Assembly: GCF_007065885.1 (NCBI RefSeq)
Contig: NZ_CP041409.1
Location: forward strand, 868,001-932,000
DNA length: 64,000 nucleotides
Origin: Altererythrobacter sp. TH136
Lineage (GTDB): Bacteria; Pseudomonadota; Alphaproteobacteria; Sphingomonadales; Sphingomonadaceae
Direction of reading: 5' to 3'
In this document: positions 12,694 to 56,616 of the stretch, piece by piece
Numbering within the stretch: position 1 is the stretch's first letter
Layout: each line of letters begins with the position of its first letter
Notes under the pieces: generated by a model
Told to the model about the DNA's origin: nothing
Seen by the model: the letters and a program-made list of their open reading frames with translations, nothing else
Databases searched by the model: none
Made by a program: the position numbers and the translations under genes

Positions 12694-12980
12694 GGATCTA
12701 TCCTTCAGCTTCAAACGACGGGCCGGACGGCCGGGTGACGGCCCTTGCTAGGCACTGTTGCCGCGCCTTGCACCCATAGTTTTTCGATGACCTGCTTGTG
12801 AAGTTGCTTTCTGCTTCGGCCCGGCCGCATCGGACCGATGGCGCGCCACCTACCGAGACCCTGTGGACGCCGCCGTTTCGCAGCCGCTCAAGCCTTCACT
12901 TCGATAAGTAGGTTCGGATGGCATCCTGCGCGGCCCGCCGCACAAGGGACGGCGACTACTGCGGCAAACGTATTTGAGAG
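12694..12980. other. Non-coding stretch left of the tRNA fragment
   Basis: I see no gene, hairpin terminator with a T-run, or repeat here. It holds the upstream region of the acyl-CoA dehydrogenase gene and the chromosomal flank of the integration site. Confidence 0.4.
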
Positions 12981-13031
12981 TGGTAGCGGAGGAGGGACTT
13001 GAACCCCCGACACGCGGATTATGATTCCGCT
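12981..13031 (-). other. 3' half of a tRNA (anticodon CAT): displaced attachment-site copy
   Basis: On the minus strand this reads an anticodon arm (GCGGA stem, loop ATCATAA with anticodon CAT, TCCGC), a five-base variable loop, a T-arm (GGGGG, TTCAAGT, CCCTC), the acceptor 3' strand CTCCGCT, A and an encoded CCA. The matching acceptor 5' strand AGCGGAG and a D-arm are absent to the right, so this is only the 3' part of a tRNA-Met or tRNA-Ile(CAU). The integrase gene starts 44 bases away. This is the expected product when an element integrates into a tRNA 3' end, with the intact tRNA at the other end. Confidence 0.75.
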
Positions 13032-13074
13032 GTTTACTACCGCAATTCTGCGGTTTTCTAGCCTCGTGCTGCAT

Positions 13075-14193
13075 TCATGTTGCACTCGCACTGCCGAAGA
13101 TGCCCCGACTTGCAGCGTGCGCTAGCGCCGTGTCGCGCTTGTCGTCCGCCATCAGGTGCCCGTAAGTATCTAGCGTCATCTGCGCGCTGGCATGCCCCAA
13201 CCAACTCTGGAGGCGCTTCAAATCCACGCCGGCAGATATCCAATTAGAGGCAGCCGCATGTCTTAGTGCGTGCATGCCAAATCTGGTCCCCTGAGCGTCG
13301 CTGAGTCTCGCACGGGCGCAGAGTGGCGCCCACCACCGCCGCAACAGGTTCTCGCGTCTAAGCGGCCCGCCTGTGGCGCTTGGCAGCAGCAACCCCTTGC
13401 CCCCGGTCCGCAGCTTATGCGCCTTCAACTCTTTCACGACTTCAGGAGGCAGGGGGATCGTGCGCCGCCCTGCCCTGCTCTTCGGCGGCCCGATGACGCC
13501 CCATGCATCAGCGCGCTGGGTTATCGTGACCGTAGCGGCCTTTAGATCAATCGCTGACCAGTCGAGTCCGCGAAGCTCGCTTGAGCGCATGCCGCTGGAG
13601 ATCAGCAGCCCCACTATCGGCCGCTCCTCGTCGCGGGCTGCCTGCAGCAGCGCGCGCAATTCGGTTGCTGCCGGTACGACCACCGGCTCGCGATCGCGGC
13701 TGGCGCGAACCACCTTCACGCCTTGCGCGACATTCTGTGCGACTAAACCGCGGCGCTGAGCTTCAGAGATGATCATCGACAGGGACCGTACAGCCTTGCC
13801 GGCCATCGCCTTAGAACGAGTGTCGAGCAACTGGTCGCGGAAGGACTCCACCTGCGGTCGGGTCAATCGCGACAAGCGCAAGCCGCCGATCAACGGCACA
13901 ATGTGGAGGCGTGCCAGTTCGCGATAAGACTTCACTGTCGAGCGCTCCCGCCCTTCCCGTTCGGACTTCGCAATCCAGAGATCAGCGGCTGCCGCTACGT
14001 CGATCGAGTCCCGATCATGCGTGTGAGTACCATCACGCACTTGCGTGGCAGCTGTCAGTGCAAAGGTCTCAGCATCCTTTTTGCGCGTGAACTGGCGCGA
14101 CCGACGCTTGCCGGCGATGTCGCGATAATCGACGAGCCACGCTTGTTTGGCGGTGCCGTCCGGGGCGACCCAGGCGCGCTTTCTAATCGCCAT
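13075..14193 (-). CDS. Tyrosine-type site-specific integrase
   Basis: The protein has 372 residues from ATG 14193 (MAIRKRAWV); a TTG nine bases upstream is unlikely. It has an N-terminal arm-binding region, a SAM-like core-binding domain (SYRELARLHIVPLIGGLRLSR) and a catalytic domain with the arginine in LISSGMRSSELRGLDW, the HALRHAAASNW box (HxxR) and LGHASAQMTLDTYGH with the nucleophilic tyrosine. Its 3' end is 44 bases from the tRNA fragment, the usual place for an integrase that uses a tRNA. It overlaps the next gene upstream by 11 bases, so the two are co-transcribed. Confidence 0.93.
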   Translation of the reverse strand: MAIRKRAWVAPDGTAKQAWLVDYRDIAGKRRSRQFTRKKDAETFALTAATQVRDGTHTHDRDSIDVAAAADLWIAKSEREGRERSTVKSYRELARLHIVPLIGGLRLSRLTRPQVESFRDQLLDTRSKAMAGKAVRSLSMIISEAQRRGLVAQNVAQGVKVVRASRDREPVVVPAATELRALLQAARDEERPIVGLLISSGMRSSELRGLDWSAIDLKAATVTITQRADAWGVIGPPKSRAGRRTIPLPPEVVKELKAHKLRTGGKGLLLPSATGGPLRRENLLRRWWAPLCARARLSDAQGTRFGMHALRHAAASNWISAGVDLKRLQSWLGHASAQMTLDTYGHLMADDKRDTALAHAASRGIFGSASAT

Positions 14194-14854
14194 CAGAGGC
14201 AACTTCGAGGTTGAGCGTCACCATCTTATCAAGACGGGTCTTCTTGAACTCTCTGATCGGCGCGCTGTTGTCGACAACCAACTTAGTCAGGAATTCGGTG
14301 AGCGTGGAACTTGATGGCTCTAAGACCTCGCTCCAATGAACCAATAAAGCGTACATCATCTCCCGGAGGCCGATGACGACCCACCTCCAGTGTTCTCCAG
14401 TGACGGGCTCAAAATCGACCTTAGAGCGCGATAGCTGACCGAGCATCTTTCGCCGTGTGACGATCGATAAGGCGCCGTAAGGCAACCGATTCTCGCGATC
14501 GAGGGCAGCAAACGTGAGGGCACTCGGACTTATAAGTAGCATCGGCTCCGATGCGTTCTTTATCGGTCCGATTGCCATCAAGCAGGCGACGAACAGATCG
14601 TCGCGGTTTTCTTCGATGAGATCTGCGACAGCGCGCGGCGACAAACCAACTTGGATCAGCTCCAGAGCTACTGCCAACTCCAAGATCATCGGAGTTGAAT
14701 AGGCGACCCGTTTGCCTTTGCCAGGGTTGGCCCCCGCCGGCACCCCTTCCCCCTGAAGCTTACGTAGCCGGGCCTTGAACGCACCTAAGCCCTCGGGCGC
14801 GACCCAGTGCATATCGGCGAAGACGCCAATTACGGCCGCATAGCTTAGCTCCAT
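14183..14854 (-). CDS. Regulator-like protein of the integrative element (function unknown)
   Basis: The protein has 223 residues from ATG 14854, which follows GGTGGGGATC; a GTG at 14902 would lengthen it by 16 residues. The first hundred residues hold segments (MELSYAAVIGVFADMHWV and YSTPMILELAVALELIQVG) that recall MerR-type or phage-repressor helix-turn-helix proteins, but I cannot assign a family with confidence. Its place, co-directional with the integrase and divergent from the Xis-like gene, is where satellites and temperate phages keep their repressor. That role is inference. Confidence 0.5.
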   Translation of the reverse strand: MELSYAAVIGVFADMHWVAPEGLGAFKARLRKLQGEGVPAGANPGKGKRVAYSTPMILELAVALELIQVGLSPRAVADLIEENRDDLFVACLMAIGPIKNASEPMLLISPSALTFAALDRENRLPYGALSIVTRRKMLGQLSRSKVDFEPVTGEHWRWVVIGLREMMYALLVHWSEVLEPSSSTLTEFLTKLVVDNSAPIREFKKTRLDKMVTLNLEVASDGD

Positions 14855-20015: not shown

Positions 20016-20552
20016 TCACAGGGCGCGATAAACGCTAGCCCTCGATATCCCGAGCTTTCGAGCTATCGCGGCCGGTCCTAATCCAGAATCTTTAAGGTCT
20101 TTGACCGCAGCCGGATCAATGCTTGGCTTTCGACCGCGGTAGACCCCGCGCTCCTTGGCTCGTTCAATGCCGTCGCGCTGCCTTTCTCGCCTGATGTCAT
20201 TCTCGAACTCAGCAACAGCGCCAAGGATTGCCAGCGTCAGCTTGCCAGTGCTGGTCGAGGTATCCACCCCACCCTGTTGAAGGCAGCGGAAAGCAACGTC
20301 CTCAGCTTGAACTCGCGCCATGATCGAGTGAAGGTCGCCTACCGAACGCGCCAGGCGATCCAGGCGCGTCACGACTAGAGTGTCCCCCTCGCGGGCCTGA
20401 TCCAGCGCCCTCCCCAGCTCAGGTCGATCTTTCGTGGATCGGCCGCTCACTTTCTCGCTGTAGATCTTTTGGCACCCCGCTGCGCGAAGGGCGTCCACTT
20501 GGGCCTCAACCGATTGTCCAGTCGAGCTCACTCGTGCGTATCCAATAAGCAT
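20016..20552 (-). CDS. Serine resolvase/invertase family recombinase
   Basis: The protein has 178 residues from ATG 20552. It begins MLIGYARVSSTGQSVEAQ with the catalytic serine in YARVSS, has VTRLDRLARSVGDLHSIM and the E-helix segment with GAVAEFENDIRRERQRDGI, and ends with a Hin-type helix-turn-helix (GLGPAAIARKLGISRASVYRAL). Length and domains fit the Tn3-resolvase/DNA-invertase group. No transposase or invertible gene pair is adjacent, so it is a stand-alone recombinase, probably a leftover of a transposon. Confidence 0.92.
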   Translation of the reverse strand: MLIGYARVSSTGQSVEAQVDALRAAGCQKIYSEKVSGRSTKDRPELGRALDQAREGDTLVVTRLDRLARSVGDLHSIMARVQAEDVAFRCLQQGGVDTSTSTGKLTLAILGAVAEFENDIRRERQRDGIERAKERGVYRGRKPSIDPAAVKDLKDSGLGPAAIARKLGISRASVYRAL

Positions 20553-36912: not shown

Positions 36913-37340
36913 CACGATAGCGAAGCCGTTTTCGGCTTTCGCATGGCACCTCCGTTCAGGCGGGTGTCAACGCAGCAGGTTGCTGACCATAACAGGATGG
37001 ATCATCGCTTCAGGTGCGTCGAGGCCCTTCGGACAGTCGCGGACGATCCATAGCCAGCGCGTCATCCGTCCAAGGTCCGCTCGACCCTCCAACTTTGAAG
37101 GAGCACTCCAAAGCCGAACACGTCCACCGACAACAGATGATCTCGACGGTGAAGTCGCGCAGAGCAGCCGCATCAGGCAGCTTGATCCGACCGCAGGGCC
37201 TATCGCCGAACGCGTGCTTTCGAGATAGCGGGCATTTGCAGATCGCGGACACGATCTCGTGGGCCCTTGCGCCGTTCGAGATGTTGGCCGTCGTCAGGGC
37301 GACCATGATAGCGATGTGGCGAGATCTCCTCGGGCACGGC
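36913..37340. other. Unassigned stretch left of the IS5-family element
   Basis: Two overlapping minus-strand open frames (36967-37173 and 37010-37357) are present, but neither has a convincing start or a recognisable domain. They may be pieces of one decayed gene cut by the insertion sequence. No regulatory signal was seen. Confidence 0.35.
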
Positions 37341-38135
37341 TTAGGTTTCGTGGACAAAGGGTATCCAGAGCTTGATTGAAGCGAGAGCGACGAAGCCGAG
37401 GTAGGACTCTTTGGTTTTGTCGTAGCGGGTCGCGATGCGCCGCCAGTTCTTCAGCTTGTTGAACAGCCGCTCGATCACGTTCCGCCAACGGTATTTTACC
37501 CGGTCGTGCGGTGCAGGTGTGCGGCGATTGGCCTTGGCAGGGATGACCGCTTCGACCGGCAGCGGCGATCTCCTCGCGGATGGCATCGGCATCATAGCCG
37601 CGGTCGGCGAGGAACGCTTCGATGCGGTCACCGATCATCCGGAAGAGCGGCGCAAAGCCTTGAACGTCGTGAGCTTGGCCGGGCGTCAGCACGAAGCCGA
37701 GTGGGAGGCCTCTGGCGTCGCATCTGGCGTGGAGTTTGGTGGTGAAGCCTCCCCGCGATCGGCCGAGCCCCTCTGTTTGCTGAGTCCCCTTTTTAAGCCG
37801 ACTGCACAATGATGTGCCCGGACCACTGTGGTGTCGATCATGTCGGCGGCAGTGTCCCGTCCCGCCAGTTCGGCCAGCGTCTCGAGCATGGCATCAAACA
37901 CGCCGGTCGTAACCCATCTTCGGTAGCGCCGGAAGACGCTGTTCCACTTGCCATACTCATCCGGCAGGTGTCGCCACTGCGCGCCGGTGCGCGCGATCCA
38001 CATCATGCCTTCGAAGTAGCGTCGATTATCCTGCGCCGGCCGGCAGCCACGCCCGCGCTCCGGCGGCAGCAGCGGCATGACCAGTTCCCACTCGTCATCC
38101 GATACCCCAATCCGCTCGCCCAAGGCCGCCTCCAA
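37341..38135 (-). pseudogene. IS5-family transposase, ORFA/ORFB with an extra frameshift
   Basis: ORFA (38135 to 37686) carries MPLLPPERGRGCRPAQDNRR and the first aspartate in DMIDTTVVRAHHCAVGL. ORFB is reached by a -1 shift at a TTAAAAAGG tract near 37797, as is normal in this group, giving KKGTQQTEGLGRSRGGFTTK and the second aspartate in LADRGYDADAIREE. A second, abnormal frameshift near 37560 separates this from the end segment KYRWRNVIERLFNKLKNWRR and YDKTKESYLGFV, which carries the catalytic glutamate and stops at 37341. As read, the protein is not functional. Confidence 0.8.
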
Positions 38136-51186: not shown

Positions 51187-53757
51187 TCATGCGGCGATCT
51201 CCTCAGCCTCTCCTGTAGCGGGGTCCCAAAGAAGATAGCGCCAATCGTGCCCAATGGGCTCGACCTGCTCATGGGGAACAAGTGCAAAAACCCCCGGTGA
51301 GGTTTCATAGGAGTACATCAGATGTTGAACATCAGACATCGTAACCAATTGGTGAGCCTTTAGCCGCCGATCCTGGAGCTCACCGTTGATCCGTACGGCG
51401 ACGTGACTGCCCGGAGCGAAAATCAGTCGCTGCCCAGACGAACCAAGGGTGCCTTCTGATCCACTTTCGACAGAGCTCTCCAGAGATTTATGCCAATTCA
51501 TGAGCCGCAAGATTGTGATTTCGTCCAGGAGCGCCTCCGTCCCGGCCATTCGGGCGCCCCGTCCCAGTTGTCCCAGTACTCCAGCGAACTCGTCAAACAA
51601 AGGAGCGGTCAGCCGGAGGCCGCCACAAAGGTCGTCGAAAATAACCAGGGCGTCGTCCAACAGGCGAGGACCGCTTTTCTCGTGCAGCGCGATGCCCGAA
51701 CATTCCCAACGCACCTCCCCTGCAGCGACGCCTCGTTCGCGGGTCAAGATGGTGGCGAGTGCTTTCCCGATCCGATCCCGCGCTTCCGCGGCCGCTCCTC
51801 CGCGTCCACGGAACCAGAGTTCGTCGATGCGGATTACGACCCCACTTGTCGAAAAGTTCCGTTGCTTGCGCGAGAGACGTCGATCACGCTGGACCAGCTC
51901 CTTGTACAGGTGGTCAGTATTGCCGCTACGAAAGCCAATCACAGTTTCCGCAACTTGCATCCTGACTTCCGCTAGGGAACCGCTCGCACTGGTTTTCAGA
52001 TGTCCGTCCAGAACTTCGCTAGCCGCGTGCGACACGCCCACCTGGGTCAACAAGATTGGTGACGTTCGAGAATAGCCGCTCGTTTTCTGCAGATAGATGG
52101 ATCGCTCGTATGCAGTGCTCCGCCACTCGATGACCTTGTAAGCGGTCTTGCGATGTCGATAGGTTCCACCTGGATAAGCCTCTCGAAGGGCCTTCCCATC
52201 GTCGATAGTGCCTATGATCTCGCCGTCGCCCCGGTGGGCTCGAAGCGCAAATTTCCCGTCACCGATCCGTCGCAAGGGATAATCGCGATGCGGGCTCCCA
52301 GACCCTCCGTGTGCAAGGACGTGATCGATCTCAGCCGGTCGGATGGCCGCAGGATGTGCCAAGCCAAACGCATCGGCAAAGCCATTGGGCCAATCGATGT
52401 CGGCTGGCAGTCGCGCGCCGCCGTCGGCGCCGCCGCATTCCTCGAACAGGCAGCAGGCGTTCTGAACCTGTACGATGGGGTTCTCAAGGTAGAGAGATGA
52501 CCGCTCAGGCACCCCTACATAAAAGTCCCGGAGCGACGTGCCCAATTTGGCAAATGCAGAAGGTTCTGCGATCACCGCAAAGACGCCGGGTCCCGATCGA
52601 CCAACCCGCCCCACCCGCTGCCGAAAAGCCTTGCGAGACATCGGCACCCCCAGGCTCAGGCCAACAGCAAACTGGGGTACGTCGATCCCGAGCTCGAGAG
52701 CAGATGTGGATACGATGGCGCGGAGGCTGCCATTGTGCATGCCTGCGGCAATTTCGCTGCGATCTTCAGGCTCGAATCCAGCACGGAAAGGTTCAACGTC
52801 ATCACGTGCTATCGTGGACGCGACATTCTCCACGACCTTTCGCCCATCGGCGAAAGCGATCAGTGAGTCTGGGGCGATCTTGCCAGCCAAGTTCTCGATC
52901 AAACTTGCTAACGCGGACTCGGCAACCTGGCCGAATTCAGGACCTTCGATGTGAAGCAATGTCTTGGCCTGCCTTGGAGCACCGTTGTCCTCTTCGCTGA
53001 CGACATTGAATGGCAGTCCGGTCAGGTCTTGAAGGTGGCCCGCAGGATCGGCGATCGTTGCGCTTGCCGCCACAAACCGCAGCTCATTTTCAGGCAAGGC
53101 CGCAGCCCCGCGGCTACGATTGCGGGCCGCACGCAATCGCCGAAACAGCAACGCGCAATTGCTGCCAAACACGCCCTCAAGATCGTGAGCCTCGTCGATC
53201 ACTACGAACGCCAAGTTCCGGGCAAAGCGCTGGGCGTCGGGTGCCGCCACCATCCGCATGAACCACGCGTGGACGATATCCTCGGTCCCGATGATCAATC
53301 TAGCTCGCGCAAGAACCGCATCTCGGTCGATAAATGATGTGCTTCCGTTCACTTCGGCAACACTGTCCGCGCTAAGTCCGGCCGCCGCGAAGGCCGAGCG
53401 CCAGCGAACCAACTGATCCCAGGCAAGGGCCTTCGTTGGGTAGAGCGCGAAACCAGTGGCGTCGGGATCGGCGAGAAACTGTCGGACCATCTCGGCTTGG
53501 AATACAAGTGTCTTGCCCGAGCCTGTGCCGGTAGCGAGCACCACGTTATCGCCTCGCCCAAGCATCGTTAGCGCCTTGGCTTGGTGCAGCCACACCTTAT
53601 CTCCACCGCGCGTCAGCGCCCGGATGACCGGCATCAGCTGATCGGTACGAAATGCAGAGGGCAGGTCGCCAAGGCGTTCTGGACCGGCACCGATATCAAA
53701 ACGATCGACGACAGAGCCCGCGGGGATGCTCGCGAGAAACTTTTTGACGCAACTCAT
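51187..53757 (-). CDS. DEAH-box superfamily 2 helicase with a large novel C-terminal region
   Basis: The protein has 856 residues; ATG 53757 overlaps the previous stop as ATGA with GAAGGAACG upstream. Motifs: Walker A ATGTGSGKT (75-83), DEAH (188-191), SAT (232-234), STSALELGIDVP (350-361), QRVGRVGRSG (380-389). This is the order in the YprA/MrfA/Hrq1 group. The C-terminal ~460 residues do not show the cysteine cluster expected of the DUF1998 domain and look unfamiliar. It is the last gene of an overlapping operon with a tyrosine recombinase and a DUF3010-like protein, suggesting joint action on DNA. Confidence 0.88.
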   Translation of the reverse strand: MSCVKKFLASIPAGSVVDRFDIGAGPERLGDLPSAFRTDQLMPVIRALTRGGDKVWLHQAKALTMLGRGDNVVLATGTGSGKTLVFQAEMVRQFLADPDATGFALYPTKALAWDQLVRWRSAFAAAGLSADSVAEVNGSTSFIDRDAVLARARLIIGTEDIVHAWFMRMVAAPDAQRFARNLAFVVIDEAHDLEGVFGSNCALLFRRLRAARNRSRGAAALPENELRFVAASATIADPAGHLQDLTGLPFNVVSEEDNGAPRQAKTLLHIEGPEFGQVAESALASLIENLAGKIAPDSLIAFADGRKVVENVASTIARDDVEPFRAGFEPEDRSEIAAGMHNGSLRAIVSTSALELGIDVPQFAVGLSLGVPMSRKAFRQRVGRVGRSGPGVFAVIAEPSAFAKLGTSLRDFYVGVPERSSLYLENPIVQVQNACCLFEECGGADGGARLPADIDWPNGFADAFGLAHPAAIRPAEIDHVLAHGGSGSPHRDYPLRRIGDGKFALRAHRGDGEIIGTIDDGKALREAYPGGTYRHRKTAYKVIEWRSTAYERSIYLQKTSGYSRTSPILLTQVGVSHAASEVLDGHLKTSASGSLAEVRMQVAETVIGFRSGNTDHLYKELVQRDRRLSRKQRNFSTSGVVIRIDELWFRGRGGAAAEARDRIGKALATILTRERGVAAGEVRWECSGIALHEKSGPRLLDDALVIFDDLCGGLRLTAPLFDEFAGVLGQLGRGARMAGTEALLDEITILRLMNWHKSLESSVESGSEGTLGSSGQRLIFAPGSHVAVRINGELQDRRLKAHQLVTMSDVQHLMYSYETSPGVFALVPHEQVEPIGHDWRYLLWDPATGEAEEIAA

Positions 53758-54323
53758 GCGCACGTTCCTTCGCGACGCTGGTGATGCTGCTGTTCCAACT
53801 TCTTGGACAGCGCGAACGCGGCGGCGCCGTATGTCCGTTCAAGGAGTTGGCGGTGACGCTTGGGCAACCGAGCTTCCGGCTCTGGAAGCATTACGTCATT
53901 CTTCTTCAGCCAAGATGCCACCTGCATAGAGCTGGCCCCTTGGGCCCGAACCTGGCGCTGCAGCCACAACGCCGCCTCTGATTTCTGGTTAAGGTGCGAT
54001 CCGGCTTTTGGACCGCTCACCGGCGGACGCTGGATGAAAAGTTCGCGGACCTTGTGAGCTCGCAGATACGCGGCAATCTCTTCTGCGAAATGCAGAAGGC
54101 TCGGCTGATCATCGCCCGCAAGTTCGAGGATGGCCTTATGAACGATATCAAGGCTGTCCCCGTCCCATGAAATGCCGACCAGACATAGGAGCGATCCGGA
54201 GGGGATCGCCGCATGTGTGGTCCACTTGGTACCGAGAGTGAGGACGTCACTGGACCTTCTCGACGTTGATCGCACCGCGGTCGGCCCATAGCTGTGCGGC
54301 GAGACAAACCGATCAAATCGCAT
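53754..54323 (-). CDS. Hypothetical protein, weakly DUF3010 / RNase H-fold-like
   Basis: The protein has 189 residues; ATG 54323 lies 11 bases inside the recombinase gene, and the stop overlaps the helicase start as ATGA. A strand-like LLCLVGISWDGDSLDIV, then VRELFIQRPPVSGPKAGSHL followed by NQKSEAALWL recall DUF3010, where a K-R...G..AG....K.EAA pattern follows the same strand. DUF3010 is thought to share a RuvC/RNase H-like fold, but the acidic residues needed for a nuclease are not clear here. A helix-rich basic C-terminus (KRHRQLLERTYGAAAFALSK) may bind DNA. Assignment is tentative. Confidence 0.6.
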   Translation of the reverse strand: MRFDRFVSPHSYGPTAVRSTSRRSSDVLTLGTKWTTHAAIPSGSLLCLVGISWDGDSLDIVHKAILELAGDDQPSLLHFAEEIAAYLRAHKVRELFIQRPPVSGPKAGSHLNQKSEAALWLQRQVRAQGASSMQVASWLKKNDVMLPEPEARLPKRHRQLLERTYGAAAFALSKKLEQQHHQRREGTCA

Positions 54324-55149
54324 GAACGAGCGCCTCCGTCCCCGCGGAGAAATCGAGATAACACTCCGTCGATGTCAGCTGGGAATGGCCCAGCAGGCGC
54401 TGCACATCCGCCAAGCTGGCATGATGAGCTCCGCATGCGCGCGCCGCTCGGGTTGCAAAAGTTCGGCGCCCGGAATGGCTAGAACAGCCCATCAGACCGA
54501 GCTCGCGATAAAGCCGAAGGAACCAAACGGTTACCGATTTTGCGTTCTGAGGCCGAATACGTCCATGGCGAGCGTTGAAGGCGACGCGATCGGTTCTCGG
54601 ATGGGCGGTGATCAGCCGGTCCAGGGCGTCCCGCAGCATCGGATGAATAGGCACCTCGCGGGTGCTGCCGGTTTTGCTGCTATAGACCGTAAGACAAGAG
54701 CCTACCTTTCCCCGTGCATCGGTAAAGGCATGCCGGCGCAATTCCGCAATCTCTCCCGCTCGCAGCCCAGCCTTGCAGGAAAGTAGGACCTTGGCCCGAT
54801 CGCTTGCGGGGCTGTTACTAGCTTCCACATGGGCCAGCACCTTGATGATATCGGCATCCGCCAAGACCCTGGCGCGCTTTGGTCCGCCCGTTTTGTGTCG
54901 AGACGTCCTTCTCGGAAACGGACAGGCATAGGCCTTGTTCTGTGGGCTGACGGCAACGCCTCGATCAGCCGTGAACGGCATCCAAAGTCCTGCCGGACCT
55001 GAACGGGCAAGCTCCTCGAATGGATCAGCCAACACTGCGCCCTTGAGCAGGTCAATATGTTGCACTGATCGGAACGCTCTGCGATCAAATTCAACTCGAG
55101 CCTCATGGGGATAGAAGCCCGTACCAGACAACCTTTCAGAACTTAGCAT
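54313..55149 (-). CDS. Tyrosine recombinase, first gene of the helicase operon
   Basis: The protein has 278 residues; ATG 55149 follows AAAGGAGGTG, while a GTG at 55155 is less likely. Catalytic motifs are the arginine in LSCKAGLRAGEIAEL, the HxxR box SSHSGRRTFATRAAR, and LLGHSQLTSTECYLD with histidine and nucleophilic tyrosine. A short N-terminal domain precedes it. It resembles the divergent recombinase at 55669 (both have SHSGRRTF, a DVQ-x-LLGH-like segment and STE-x-Y). It overlaps the following gene by 11 bases, so recombinase, DUF3010-like protein and helicase are translated together. Confidence 0.88.
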   Translation of the reverse strand: MLSSERLSGTGFYPHEARVEFDRRAFRSVQHIDLLKGAVLADPFEELARSGPAGLWMPFTADRGVAVSPQNKAYACPFPRRTSRHKTGGPKRARVLADADIIKVLAHVEASNSPASDRAKVLLSCKAGLRAGEIAELRRHAFTDARGKVGSCLTVYSSKTGSTREVPIHPMLRDALDRLITAHPRTDRVAFNARHGRIRPQNAKSVTVWFLRLYRELGLMGCSSHSGRRTFATRAARACGAHHASLADVQRLLGHSQLTSTECYLDFSAGTEALVHAI

Positions 55150-55668
55150 TAGCACCTCCTTTCTATTCCGATTCGCTTTGCTTTTACAAGCTAGAGTTGA
55201 TTACAGCAAACGCGCTATTTTTACATTAACCTTAACGTCTAGAAATGTACTTCATCGTTATTGAAGTCGCAGAATGAAGGGGTTCACATGACTCTCCATT
55301 GGTCGCATCGAAAACGGGGGGACATTCGCCGGCTCACGTGTGCAGTGCTTCAGCTGCGGCTTTCAGCGACAGTTTCGATGCCAAACTTGCCGACAGGTTG
55401 CGCACAGATGCCAACCCTCATCGGCACGGCCGGACCACTCGGTTCAAGCTGGCGGCAGAGCCTCGTCGTGCAACCACCTGAATTTCTTAAGAGAAAGTGA
55501 TCACTGTAAAGTCTAAGTAGCAATACCATGACTAAGTAGCAAAATCGGTCTTTTGCTACTTACCAATGTTACACAGGGTCGACTTTAACTGTCTCTGGGG
55601 AATATCTACGAACCGGAAGATTCATCCGCACAGAAAATCTTGTTCGGCTCGCCCTGCACCCTCTTGGT
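55150..55668. other. AT-rich region between divergent recombinases
   Basis: This holds both recombinase promoters. It is clearly lower in GC than the rest, for example CTATTTTTACATTAACC near 55220. Two small open frames (55261-55500, 55299-55481) overlap in different frames and are not convincing. The striking feature is the inverted repeat at 55533. Confidence 0.5.
55514..55562. repeat. Perfect 12-6-12 inverted repeat plus a half-site: candidate recombination core
   Basis: TAAGTAGCAAAA (55533-55544) and TTTTGCTACTTA (55551-55562) are perfect inverted repeats around TCGGTC. An extra direct half-site TAAGTAGCAATA lies at 55514-55525. Two 11-13-bp arms around a 6-8-bp spacer is the architecture of Xer dif and lox-type sites. 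Confidence 0.65.
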
Positions 55669-56616
55669 ATGCGCTCCCCGCCATTCGCCGGTCTTTCAAC
55701 GGGAAGATTGCGAACTCTTGATCAGGAGCATGGTTTGTCCCGCCGACGGTTTCGAGATGAGACGAAGCACGATGCCGAGAAGGCTGCGCGCCAAGCGCGC
55801 CTCGACGCAAATTTCTTTGAGCAGACTGGCCTTCATTGGCCCCAGGTGGCGTGTGACGAAGGATCTGCCTCCCCGCCCCGCTCGCACCGAGCCAAGGTCC
55901 CGCGTCGACCTAGCAAAACCCCTCCGGTGCTCAACCAGTCAAAGTCTGCAAAGCCCAAGCCCACGGTGAAGGCCGTCAAACAAGAAGATGTCTCGGGCCT
56001 TGCCCGCACTAGAGGCGCTAAGAAGCGAGCGAAGCGCCTCAGCGAGAGCGAGTTGGAGCGTATGCTGGAAGTCGCAGGACGTGGCAATTCACCCTACAGT
56101 GATCGAGCGGTCCTGTTGCTCTCATATGATGCAGGCCTGCGGGCGTGTGAGATCGCAGACCTACGGGTGGACACATTCCTCACTGCCAGTGGGGACGTGG
56201 GCAAGACGCTCGACGTGATGCCGGGAACTGCCAAGTACGGCCGCGGACGCCCCCTGCCTATGACGCCTCGCCTACGAAAAGCGCTCGCGGATCTGCATCG
56301 TGAGCATCCTGCAGCTGAGTTCGTCGCGTTCAGCAATCGCCGAGGCCATCTTAAGTACCGCAATTCGAAAGCGTTGAGGTGTGCCTACAAGAAGATCGCC
56401 GAAGACGCGGGCCTTTTGGGCGTATCTAGTCACTCCGGTCGGCGCACATTTGGAACTGAGCACGCGCGATTGGCGAACTTGGCGGGCGGGTCAATTCGGG
56501 ATGTCCAAGCAATGCTTGGACACGCCTTCCTTAGTTCAACGGAGGCTTATATCGATCCTGGCGAAGCAGTGGTAAGGATGGTGGAGCTGCGCGCCGCACG
56601 GAAGCGGAAGAAGTAA
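55669..56616 (+). CDS. Tyrosine recombinase, divergent partner
   Basis: The protein has 315 residues from ATG 55669; a later start is possible because the first ~90 residues are basic and low-complexity (SKPKPTVKAVK region). The catalytic domain has the arginine in LLLSYDAGLRACEIADLRV, the HxxR box SSHSGRRTFGTEHAR, and MLGHAFLSSTEAYIDPG with histidine and tyrosine. It shares motif spacing with the recombinase at 54313-55149, suggesting a duplicated or paired recombinase set. No further gene follows on its strand before purU. Confidence 0.86.
   Translation: MRSPPFAGLSTGRLRTLDQEHGLSRRRFRDETKHDAEKAARQARLDANFFEQTGLHWPQVACDEGSASPPRSHRAKVPRRPSKTPPVLNQSKSAKPKPTVKAVKQEDVSGLARTRGAKKRAKRLSESELERMLEVAGRGNSPYSDRAVLLLSYDAGLRACEIADLRVDTFLTASGDVGKTLDVMPGTAKYGRGRPLPMTPRLRKALADLHREHPAAEFVAFSNRRGHLKYRNSKALRCAYKKIAEDAGLLGVSSHSGRRTFGTEHARLANLAGGSIRDVQAMLGHAFLSSTEAYIDPGEAVVRMVELRAARKRKK

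What the first reader, a model, noticed from the sequence alone, without database searches (positions are those of the whole stretch)
51187..55149. Overlapping operon: tyrosine recombinase, DUF3010-like protein, DEAH helicase
The sequence shows three genes with 11-bp and ATGA overlaps, so they are made together in one order. The recombinase is complete, the helicase has all motor motifs but an unfamiliar 460-residue C-terminus without an obvious DUF1998 zinc cluster, and the middle protein weakly recalls an RNase H-like fold. I know of no described system with this trio (DISARM, Druantia and Dpt systems differ in partners). It could be a helicase-assisted mobile element or a defence or DNA-repair island that moves by its own recombinase.
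Basis: partly seen in the sequence, partly recalled or inferred. Interest (0 to 1): 0.78.

Follow-up and report, generated by a model that had tools for sequence, protein, structure and literature searches.

The report
YprA-type helicase operon with phage-like recombinase
A bacterial gene cluster joins a DNA-pulling motor of a family often used against viruses with a DNA-cutting-and-rejoining enzyme and a small RNase H-like protein; a second, rearranged copy in another genus suggests that the genes work together, probably in defence against foreign DNA.

Summary
The trio is real: tyrosine recombinase, DUF3010-like protein and DEAH helicase in one overlapping minus-strand operon. The helicase is not unfamiliar: it is of the YprA/MrfA family, matching MrfA over nearly its whole length in sequence profile and fold, without the C-terminal zinc-cysteine cluster (31 of 31 sequences compared). 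The lineage is rare (about 1% of genomes sampled). Its commonest partner is a HATPase protein (8 of 16 close loci), and 7 of 8 neighbourhoods checked (hand-picked proteins) hold defence-type genes such as type III-B CRISPR, Septu, restriction systems and SIR2. The recombinase/DUF3010 version is a separate branch. It recurs, in another order but again fully overlapping, in one other genus, in a 22-kb island bounded by 40-bp tRNA-Gly repeats that carries another integrase. In 249 genomes the only DUF3010 matches besides 20 strong canonical ones are these two. The middle protein has probably lost catalytic acids. Best reading: a variant YprA-helicase defence operon that adopted a phage-type recombinase. 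Defence is inferred from context, not shown; mobility by its own recombinase is not supported.

The parts
54313..55155 (-). tyrosine recombinase 1 (280 aa from GTG; ATG 55149 preceded by AGGAGG); catalytic domain with a short, divergent N-terminus
   Evidence: PF00589 E 1.6e-15; phrog_216 integrase E 1.1e-28; R132, K161, H227, R230, H257, Y266 kept in the three proteins aligned
53754..54323 (-). DUF3010-like protein (189 aa), predicted RNase H-like fold, probably inactive
   Evidence: PF11215 28.8 bits over cut-off 25; profile from 17 canonical members E 1.5e-11 in a 3-sequence search; of the canonical acids E7/E86/E128 only E86 is kept by my reading of the alignments
51187..53763 (-). YprA/MrfA-family DEAH helicase (858 aa from GTG, ATG at 53757), C-terminal half of the MrfA type without zinc cluster, plus a C-terminal beta-rich tail (about residues 779-858)
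   Evidence: PF00270/PF00271; TIGR03817 209 bits, far below its cut-off of 874; MrfA best PDB match 334.6 bits, profile 9-729 of 850; AF2 pLDDT 87.7, Foldseek top match MrfA 6znp
55669..56616 (+). tyrosine recombinase 2 (315 aa), divergently transcribed, sister of recombinase 1
   Evidence: PF00589 E 1.9e-17; 40% identity to recombinase 1; sister branch, SH-aLRT 89
55156..55668 (.). intergenic region between the divergent recombinases, GC 0.48
   Evidence: GC; no sigma-70-like promoter and no terminator-like site in 55000-55800
55533..55562 (.). perfect inverted repeat, 12-bp arms and 6-bp spacer, no second match in the genome with up to 3 mismatches; candidate recombinase core site or operator
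   Evidence: one further direct half-copy at 55514

Best explanation
The unit is a variant of a rare, defence-associated lineage of YprA/MrfA-family helicases. Shown by sequence: the helicase lineage often pairs with a HATPase protein, and one branch instead carries a phage-type tyrosine recombinase and a DUF3010-like protein in one overlapping operon. Inferred: the helicase loads on and translocates along foreign DNA (phage replication or other branched intermediates). The DUF3010 protein, of a family placed near Holliday-junction resolvases but here probably without catalysis, acts as a DNA- or junction-recognising or scaffolding subunit. The recombinase works within the complex as the strand-cutting or joining partner, or sets operon expression at the palindrome between the two recombinase genes. 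Its original source is probably a phage.
For: The operon recurs with overlapping junctions in another genus despite 44-45% helicase identity; the two helicases are sisters at 100/100. Of 22 DUF3010 matches in 249 genomes, 20 are strong canonical ones and the other two, own genome and G025, both lie beside this helicase. The four helicase-linked recombinases group in one part of the recombinase tree with phage-contig relatives (98 SH-aLRT for the 8-row set; the four alone only 33). Helicase in 5 of 397, 4 of 385 and 4 of 326 genomes (own genome counted, samples overlapping): rare and patchy. Defence-type genes in 7 of 8 checked neighbourhoods: Cas10/Cmr4/Cmr5/Csx1, PtuA/PtuB, type ISP and type III restriction-modification, SIR2, C5 methyltransferase, Mrr-helicase. 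GC3 unlike the flanks.
Against: No functional test. Only two complete trios are known, both from the same bacterial family f1, and the G025 DUF3010 match is below the Pfam cut-off (20.6-22 against 25 bits), though E 1e-7 with my own profile. The proteins scanned for defence were hand-picked, 7 of the 15 loci were not scanned, and there was no control set. The nearest solved relative, MrfA, is described as a repair helicase. I saw no defence gene beside the trio in the window (ORF list only). In L012/L026 and L013/L034 the genes next to the helicase look like housekeeping ones by eye, though L012 has methyltransferase-like and Mrr-like ORFs 2-5 kb away.
Confidence: 0.5

Rival explanations
1. 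A mobile element: the recombinase(s) move the unit, with the helicase and DUF3010 protein as accessory factors or cargo. The palindrome between the recombinases would be the crossover site.
For: Two intact recombinases; low GC and GC3; a 12-6-12 palindrome like a recombinase core site beside recombinase 2; helicase absent from the 10 other genomes of the genus; the copy in G025 lies between 40-bp repeats.
Against: Helicase and recombinase pair occur once in the genome; no convincing terminal repeats and no empty site for the window copy; the palindrome occurs once in the genome and is not a family-wide feature (spacer 6: 5 of 56 upstream regions with at least 10 of 12 matches, other spacers 2-9; at least 11 of 12: 4 of 56, other spacers 1-3); the G025 island has its own phage-type integrase; 13 of 16 close helicase loci have no such recombinase beside them.
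Confidence: 0.2
2. A DNA-repair unit: a MrfAB-like pair in which DUF3010 stands in for the exonuclease MrfB, and the recombinase resolves intermediates.
For: MrfA is the closest solved relative over nearly the full length. Bell 2025 puts MrfAB and YprA-only helicases on a repair branch (section 5). DUF3010 is placed near Holliday-junction resolvases (passages).
Against: Rare and patchy distribution; defence-type neighbourhoods; GC3 unlike the flanks; probable loss of catalytic acids in the middle protein.
Confidence: 0.15
3. Chance company in an integration hot spot: recombinase, DUF3010 and helicase are independent passengers.
For: All look like island genes; most close relatives of the helicase lack the other two.
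Against: Overlapping junctions in both genomes with different gene orders; both outlying DUF3010 genes are here; the helicases are sisters and the recombinases group together.
Confidence: 0.1

Closest known systems
MrfA/YprA (and MrfAB) helicases
   Same: Same SF2 helicase architecture over nearly the whole chain; MrfA is the best sequence and structure match. MrfA works with MrfB, a 3'-5' exonuclease (Bell 2025 section 8; its RNase H-type fold is recalled).
   Different: No C-terminal Cys cluster, an extra C-terminal beta-rich tail, and the partners are a recombinase and a DUF3010-like protein.
TALON (Bell et al. 2025 preprint, PMC12458937; sections 5 and 8)
   Same: YprA-family helicase combined with an inactivated RNase H-fold domain.
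   Different: In TALON the domain is fused to the helicase, and the system typically has a NERD nuclease, TPR-CSD and TBP. Here it is a separate DUF3010-like gene and those partners are not in the trio.
Dpd, DISARM, Druantia, ARMADA
   Same: YprA-family helicases in defence operons; Dpd too has lost the zinc cluster (section 7).
   Different: Partners differ. PADLOC scores are low (best SngC 66.2, DruE 64.7, DpdF 49.3, DrmA 33.1 bits) against 334.6 bits to MrfA (a profile search, so not the same scale), and the window helicase has no CxxC.
DUF3010 (PF11215), RNase H-like family D.19 of Majorek et al. 2014 (passages)
   Same: Profile match above cut-off for the window protein.
   Different: Described there as mostly gammaproteobacterial single-domain proteins. 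Within about 1.5 kb of 20 canonical loci no recombinase or HATPase of these families was found; one (L070) has a 461-aa ORF matching the helicase profile at E 5.7e-21, too short for this family and probably a generic DEAD helicase.
Tyrosine recombinases on viral contigs (phrog_216)
   Same: Nearest relatives of the trio's recombinases in the tree are on four IMG/VR contigs of 14-163 kb.
   Different: No helicase of this family was found in the 79 viral loci held, each at most about 17 kb.

Membership tests
YprA/MrfA helicase family | similarity over the full length including the region after RecA2 | tested here: met
   profile 9-729 of 850 against MrfA 9-716 of 751, E 1.1e-98; Foldseek TM 0.66/0.75 over 816 columns, gaps included
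YprA/MrfA helicase family | 4-cysteine DUF1998 zinc cluster | tested here: not met
   0 Cys in the last 140 residues of the window helicase, at most 2 in any of 31 sequences and no CxxC there; four rows have one CxxC elsewhere. That the cluster lies at MrfA's very end is recalled. Bell 2025 reports its loss in Dpd too, so this does not exclude the family
ARMADA/BRIGADE/TALON/Druantia lineage | CxxC zinc-binding modules inserted in the helicase (section 7) | tested here: not met
   no CxxC motif in the window helicase
DISARM / Dpd / Druantia systems | partner genes of those systems next to the helicase | tested here: not met
   partners are recombinases and a DUF3010-like protein, without PADLOC hits; genes further out not scanned
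TALON | helicase fused to an inactive RNase H domain | tested here: not met
   the middle protein is a separate gene; Pfam shows only motor domains in the helicase
DUF3010 (PF11215) | profile match above curated cut-off | tested here: met
   28.8 vs 25 bits; the G025 protein falls short (20.6 bits)
DUF3010 (PF11215) | conserved acidic residues E7, E86, E128 | tested here: not met
   only E86 has an acidic counterpart; the N-terminal strand lies outside the profile match, so its alignment is less sure
RNase H-like fold | fold of the middle protein | tested here: inconclusive
   single-sequence AF2 model unusable, pLDDT 38.8; fold inferred only through DUF3010
tyrosine recombinase | R-K-H-R-H-Y catalytic set (set recalled) | tested here: met
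   6 of 6 in the three proteins compared
self-mobile element | defined ends, empty site or several copies | tested here: not met
   only the G025 copy has flanking repeats
anti-phage defence system | measured protection | not testable with these tools
   context evidence only

The most novel reading that the evidence does not exclude
A new class of YprA-helicase immunity in which a tyrosine recombinase taken from phages is itself the effector: helicase plus inactive RNase H-like subunit find branched or replicating foreign DNA, and the recombinase cuts, joins or resolves it. A sister two-gene form uses a HATPase protein instead.
Probability: 0.2. Interest if true: 0.82.

Novelty: new variant of a known kind. 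Interest (0 to 1): 0.55.

Why it matters
YprA-family helicases were recently proposed as the common core of several immune systems (Bell et al. 2025). This lineage scores nearest to the repair-type MrfA, lacks the zinc cluster, sits among defence-type genes and swaps partners (HATPase versus recombinase plus DUF3010). If confirmed, it would be a further recruitment of the family into immunity and would give a DUF3010 relative a role; one search listed only two papers that name DUF3010. It would also make testable the idea that a site-specific recombinase can serve as a defence component rather than as a mobility enzyme.

Tried and rejected
Rejected: a transposon moved by its own recombinase (no ends, no second copy). 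An empty site between sulP and purU in the genus: 8 of 11 genomes, own included, have purU and 2 of 11 have sulP at E 1e-50, and the two are not neighbours in the four regions read. A family-wide dif-like site upstream of the recombinases: spacer 6 gave 5 of 56 with at least 10 of 12 matches against 2-9 for other spacers, and 4 of 56 with at least 11 against 1-3; shuffles gave about 0-1 at every spacer, so palindromes are common there but spacer 6 is not special. A DUF3010 reading of the extra 180-aa protein in G025: hhalign 0.8% against the canonical profile, 0.2% against the window protein. Middle protein structure: unusable.

Led nowhere: no relative of the middle protein in plasmids or phages; 1 further match, G025, in 296 genomes of the order; no helicase relative on viral contigs by two pattern scans; plasmids: 44 records, all below 33% identity, one covering 80% of the query; viral fold library: TM at most 0.35 by query length in the 50 rows shown. 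PMC12595487 (passages) on phage-carried islands names no such trio.

Rows dropped before counts: one canonical row (L081) was a wrong ORF and was ignored; one search used 17 of the 20 canonical DUF3010 loci; helicase alignment A4 left out L022, L029, L039 and L043; the helicase tree used 28 rows and left out L007, L029, L038, L039, L041, L043-L047 and repeats of the same genomes (L012, L013); L173 was fetched later and is not in it; the recombinase palindrome scan and tree used viral loci L090-L139 only (of L090-L168), at E 1e-15 or better, without near-duplicates, the tree also only rows of 140 bits or more.
Full report
Observation. The minus strand holds recombinase, DUF3010-like protein and helicase in one overlapping operon. 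The recombinase's ATG at 55149 has an AGGAGG just upstream; recombinase and middle gene overlap by 11 bp; the helicase's ATG at 53757 overlaps the middle gene's stop as ATGA. PF11215 matches the middle protein above its cut-off. The recombinase keeps the six residues I assign as catalytic and the helicase its motor motifs. Third-position GC of the four genes is 0.59-0.65, against 0.86 for sulP on the left and 0.74 for purU on the right; gene names of the flanks are mine, from the sequences.

Helicase. A profile of 31 sequences (window included) has MrfA (YprA) as best match in the PDB, 334.6 bits, covering positions 9-729 of 850. The AlphaFold2 model is good (pLDDT 87.7, pTM 0.85) and Foldseek ranks MrfA first (TM 0.66/0.75). 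So the 460-residue C-terminus is of the YprA kind, but the match ends before MrfA's last 35 residues, where (recalled) its zinc cluster lies: none of the 31 has a CxxC in the last 140 residues, and only Cys438 is invariant in the alignment. A beta-rich tail (about 779-858) follows.

Distribution and partners. Full-length relatives occur in 4 of 385 genomes of the class at E 1e-40, and in 5 of 397 of the family and 4 of 326 of the order at E 1e-60; the own genome is counted each time and the samples overlap. A pattern-based scan of genome contigs gave 34 loci, two of them the same genomes as L012 and L013. Among 16 close loci (window, L008, L014-L025, L170, L173), 8 have a HATPase protein beside the helicase, in four of them overlapping its start by 4-89 bp; 3 have a recombinase of this family (window, L008 and, 1.5 kb upstream, L025); 5 have neither. 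L021 and L024 are short contigs, so absences there mean little; L014 has a 20-bit recombinase match 8 kb away. In the helicase tree the window and L008 proteins are sisters at 100/100, and with L025 and five HATPase-type proteins form a group at 99/98.

Defence context. I scanned 20 hand-picked neighbour proteins of 8 loci against PADLOC; 7 loci have defence-type genes: L173 type III-B CRISPR (Cas10, Cmr4, Cmr5, Csx1), L016 Septu (PtuA 577 bits, PtuB 300), L170 type ISP restriction-modification, L018 type III methyltransferase, L014 SIR2, L023 C5 methyltransferase, L008 an Mrr-helicase (Mrr domain over the Pfam cut-off; its PADLOC match lies in the motor part). L015 gave weak ATPase hits there, though it also has a protein alike to the SF1 helicase-nuclease of L170 by eye. 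The other 7 neighbourhoods were not scanned and no control set was run, so this is suggestive, not a measured enrichment.

Second trio. In G025 (another genus of the same family) the order is recombinase, helicase, a 180-aa protein of unknown kind, DUF3010-like protein, and all three junctions are ATGA overlaps. Its DUF3010 match is below the Pfam cut-off (20.6 bits) but E 1e-7 with my profile. The DUF3010 search of 249 phylum genomes matched 22: 20 strong ones plus these two, so both outliers, one of them the own genome, lie beside this helicase. The G025 unit is inside an island: a 40-bp copy of the 5' end of tRNA-Gly lies 22.3 kb from the intact tRNA gene, and a phage-type integrase is downstream of the trio; a further integrase-like ORF follows just beyond the tRNA by eye. 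The related genome G019 carries that tRNA with 14 bp upstream but, apart from two weaker tRNA matches, nothing else of the 19.5 kb searched; as its other flanks also differ from those of G025, this is not a proven empty site.

Middle protein. Majorek et al. 2014 (passages read) place DUF3010 in the RNase H-like superfamily near Holliday-junction resolvases and say that it keeps active-site residues. Canonical members keep acidic residues at E7 (16 of 17), E86 (17 of 17) and E128 (14 of 17). The window protein and the G025 protein keep the E86 equivalent but show no acid at the first-strand position, and E128 falls on a non-acidic residue in the window protein by the profile alignment. I conclude that it is probably inactive; the fold itself could not be modelled.

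Recombinases. They are found widely: 79 loci in viral contigs and 11 of 159 genomes of the family at E 1e-20. The four helicase-linked ones fall together (0 of 500 shuffles as clustered), inside a set of 8 supported at 98 with four from viral contigs; the support for the four alone is only 33 and three of them have long branches. The surroundings of those four viral genes include proteins that I read by eye as RIIA-like and SNF2-like (no profile run). The gap between the window's recombinases holds a perfect 12-6-12 palindrome without a second match in the genome. Its form suits a recombinase core site, but equally an operator; the family-wide test was negative.

Mechanism and novelty. Steps shown: gene linkage, family membership, recurrence, defence-type neighbourhoods. 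Steps inferred: translocation on foreign DNA, junction recognition by the inactive RNase H-like protein, and a recombinase role in the complex or in expression. Bell et al. 2025 (abstract, sections 5, 7, 8, 9 and passages) describe DISARM, Dpd, Druantia, ARMADA, BRIGADE and TALON; in its main text the words DUF3010, HATPase, GHKL and STAS do not occur, and its supplements were not read. My paper searches listed no title or abstract start describing this trio or the HATPase pair, in a library of open-licence PMC papers only; one search showed 10 of 127 papers. I file it as a new variant of a known kind.

Noticed in passing
L014 7714-8736, L015 7477-8718, L016 7674-8735, L017 7747-8718, L170 6654-7643, L023 7685-8707, L019 11328-12875, L021 3709-4719: A HATPase protein (N-terminal part STAS-like by eye) is the commonest partner of this helicase lineage and has no PADLOC match in the two examples scanned: a candidate two-gene defence unit.
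   Followed up: partly
L173 8407-18887: A helicase of this lineage lies directly downstream of a Csx1-like CARF protein in a type III-B CRISPR locus with Cmr4, Cmr5 and Cas10.
   Followed up: partly
window 12850-14202: A phage-type integrase ORF by eye (13075-14202, minus) with an adjoining frame that reads like a tRNA 3' end; ARAGORN finds no tRNA in the window. Possible remnant of another island.
   Followed up: no
window 20016-20552 and 37294-38135: By eye a serine resolvase and an IS5-like transposase (ORF list): the window looks like a mosaic of acquired stretches.
   Followed up: no
L132 and L117, upstream of the recombinase: Perfect palindromes with 6-bp spacers (13- and 14-bp arms) 41-111 bp before viral-contig recombinases; the L132 one looks dif-like to me (recalled).
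   Followed up: partly
L190 16339-16378 and L008 19164-19203: Exact 40-bp direct repeat of the 5' end of tRNA-Gly bounding 22.3 kb that also carry a C5-methyltransferase-like ORF (by eye) and a GHKL/Mrr-helicase pair.
   Followed up: yes
L012 4149-7770: By eye a DNA-methyltransferase-like and an Mrr-like ORF 2-5 kb from a lone helicase of the wider family.
   Followed up: no
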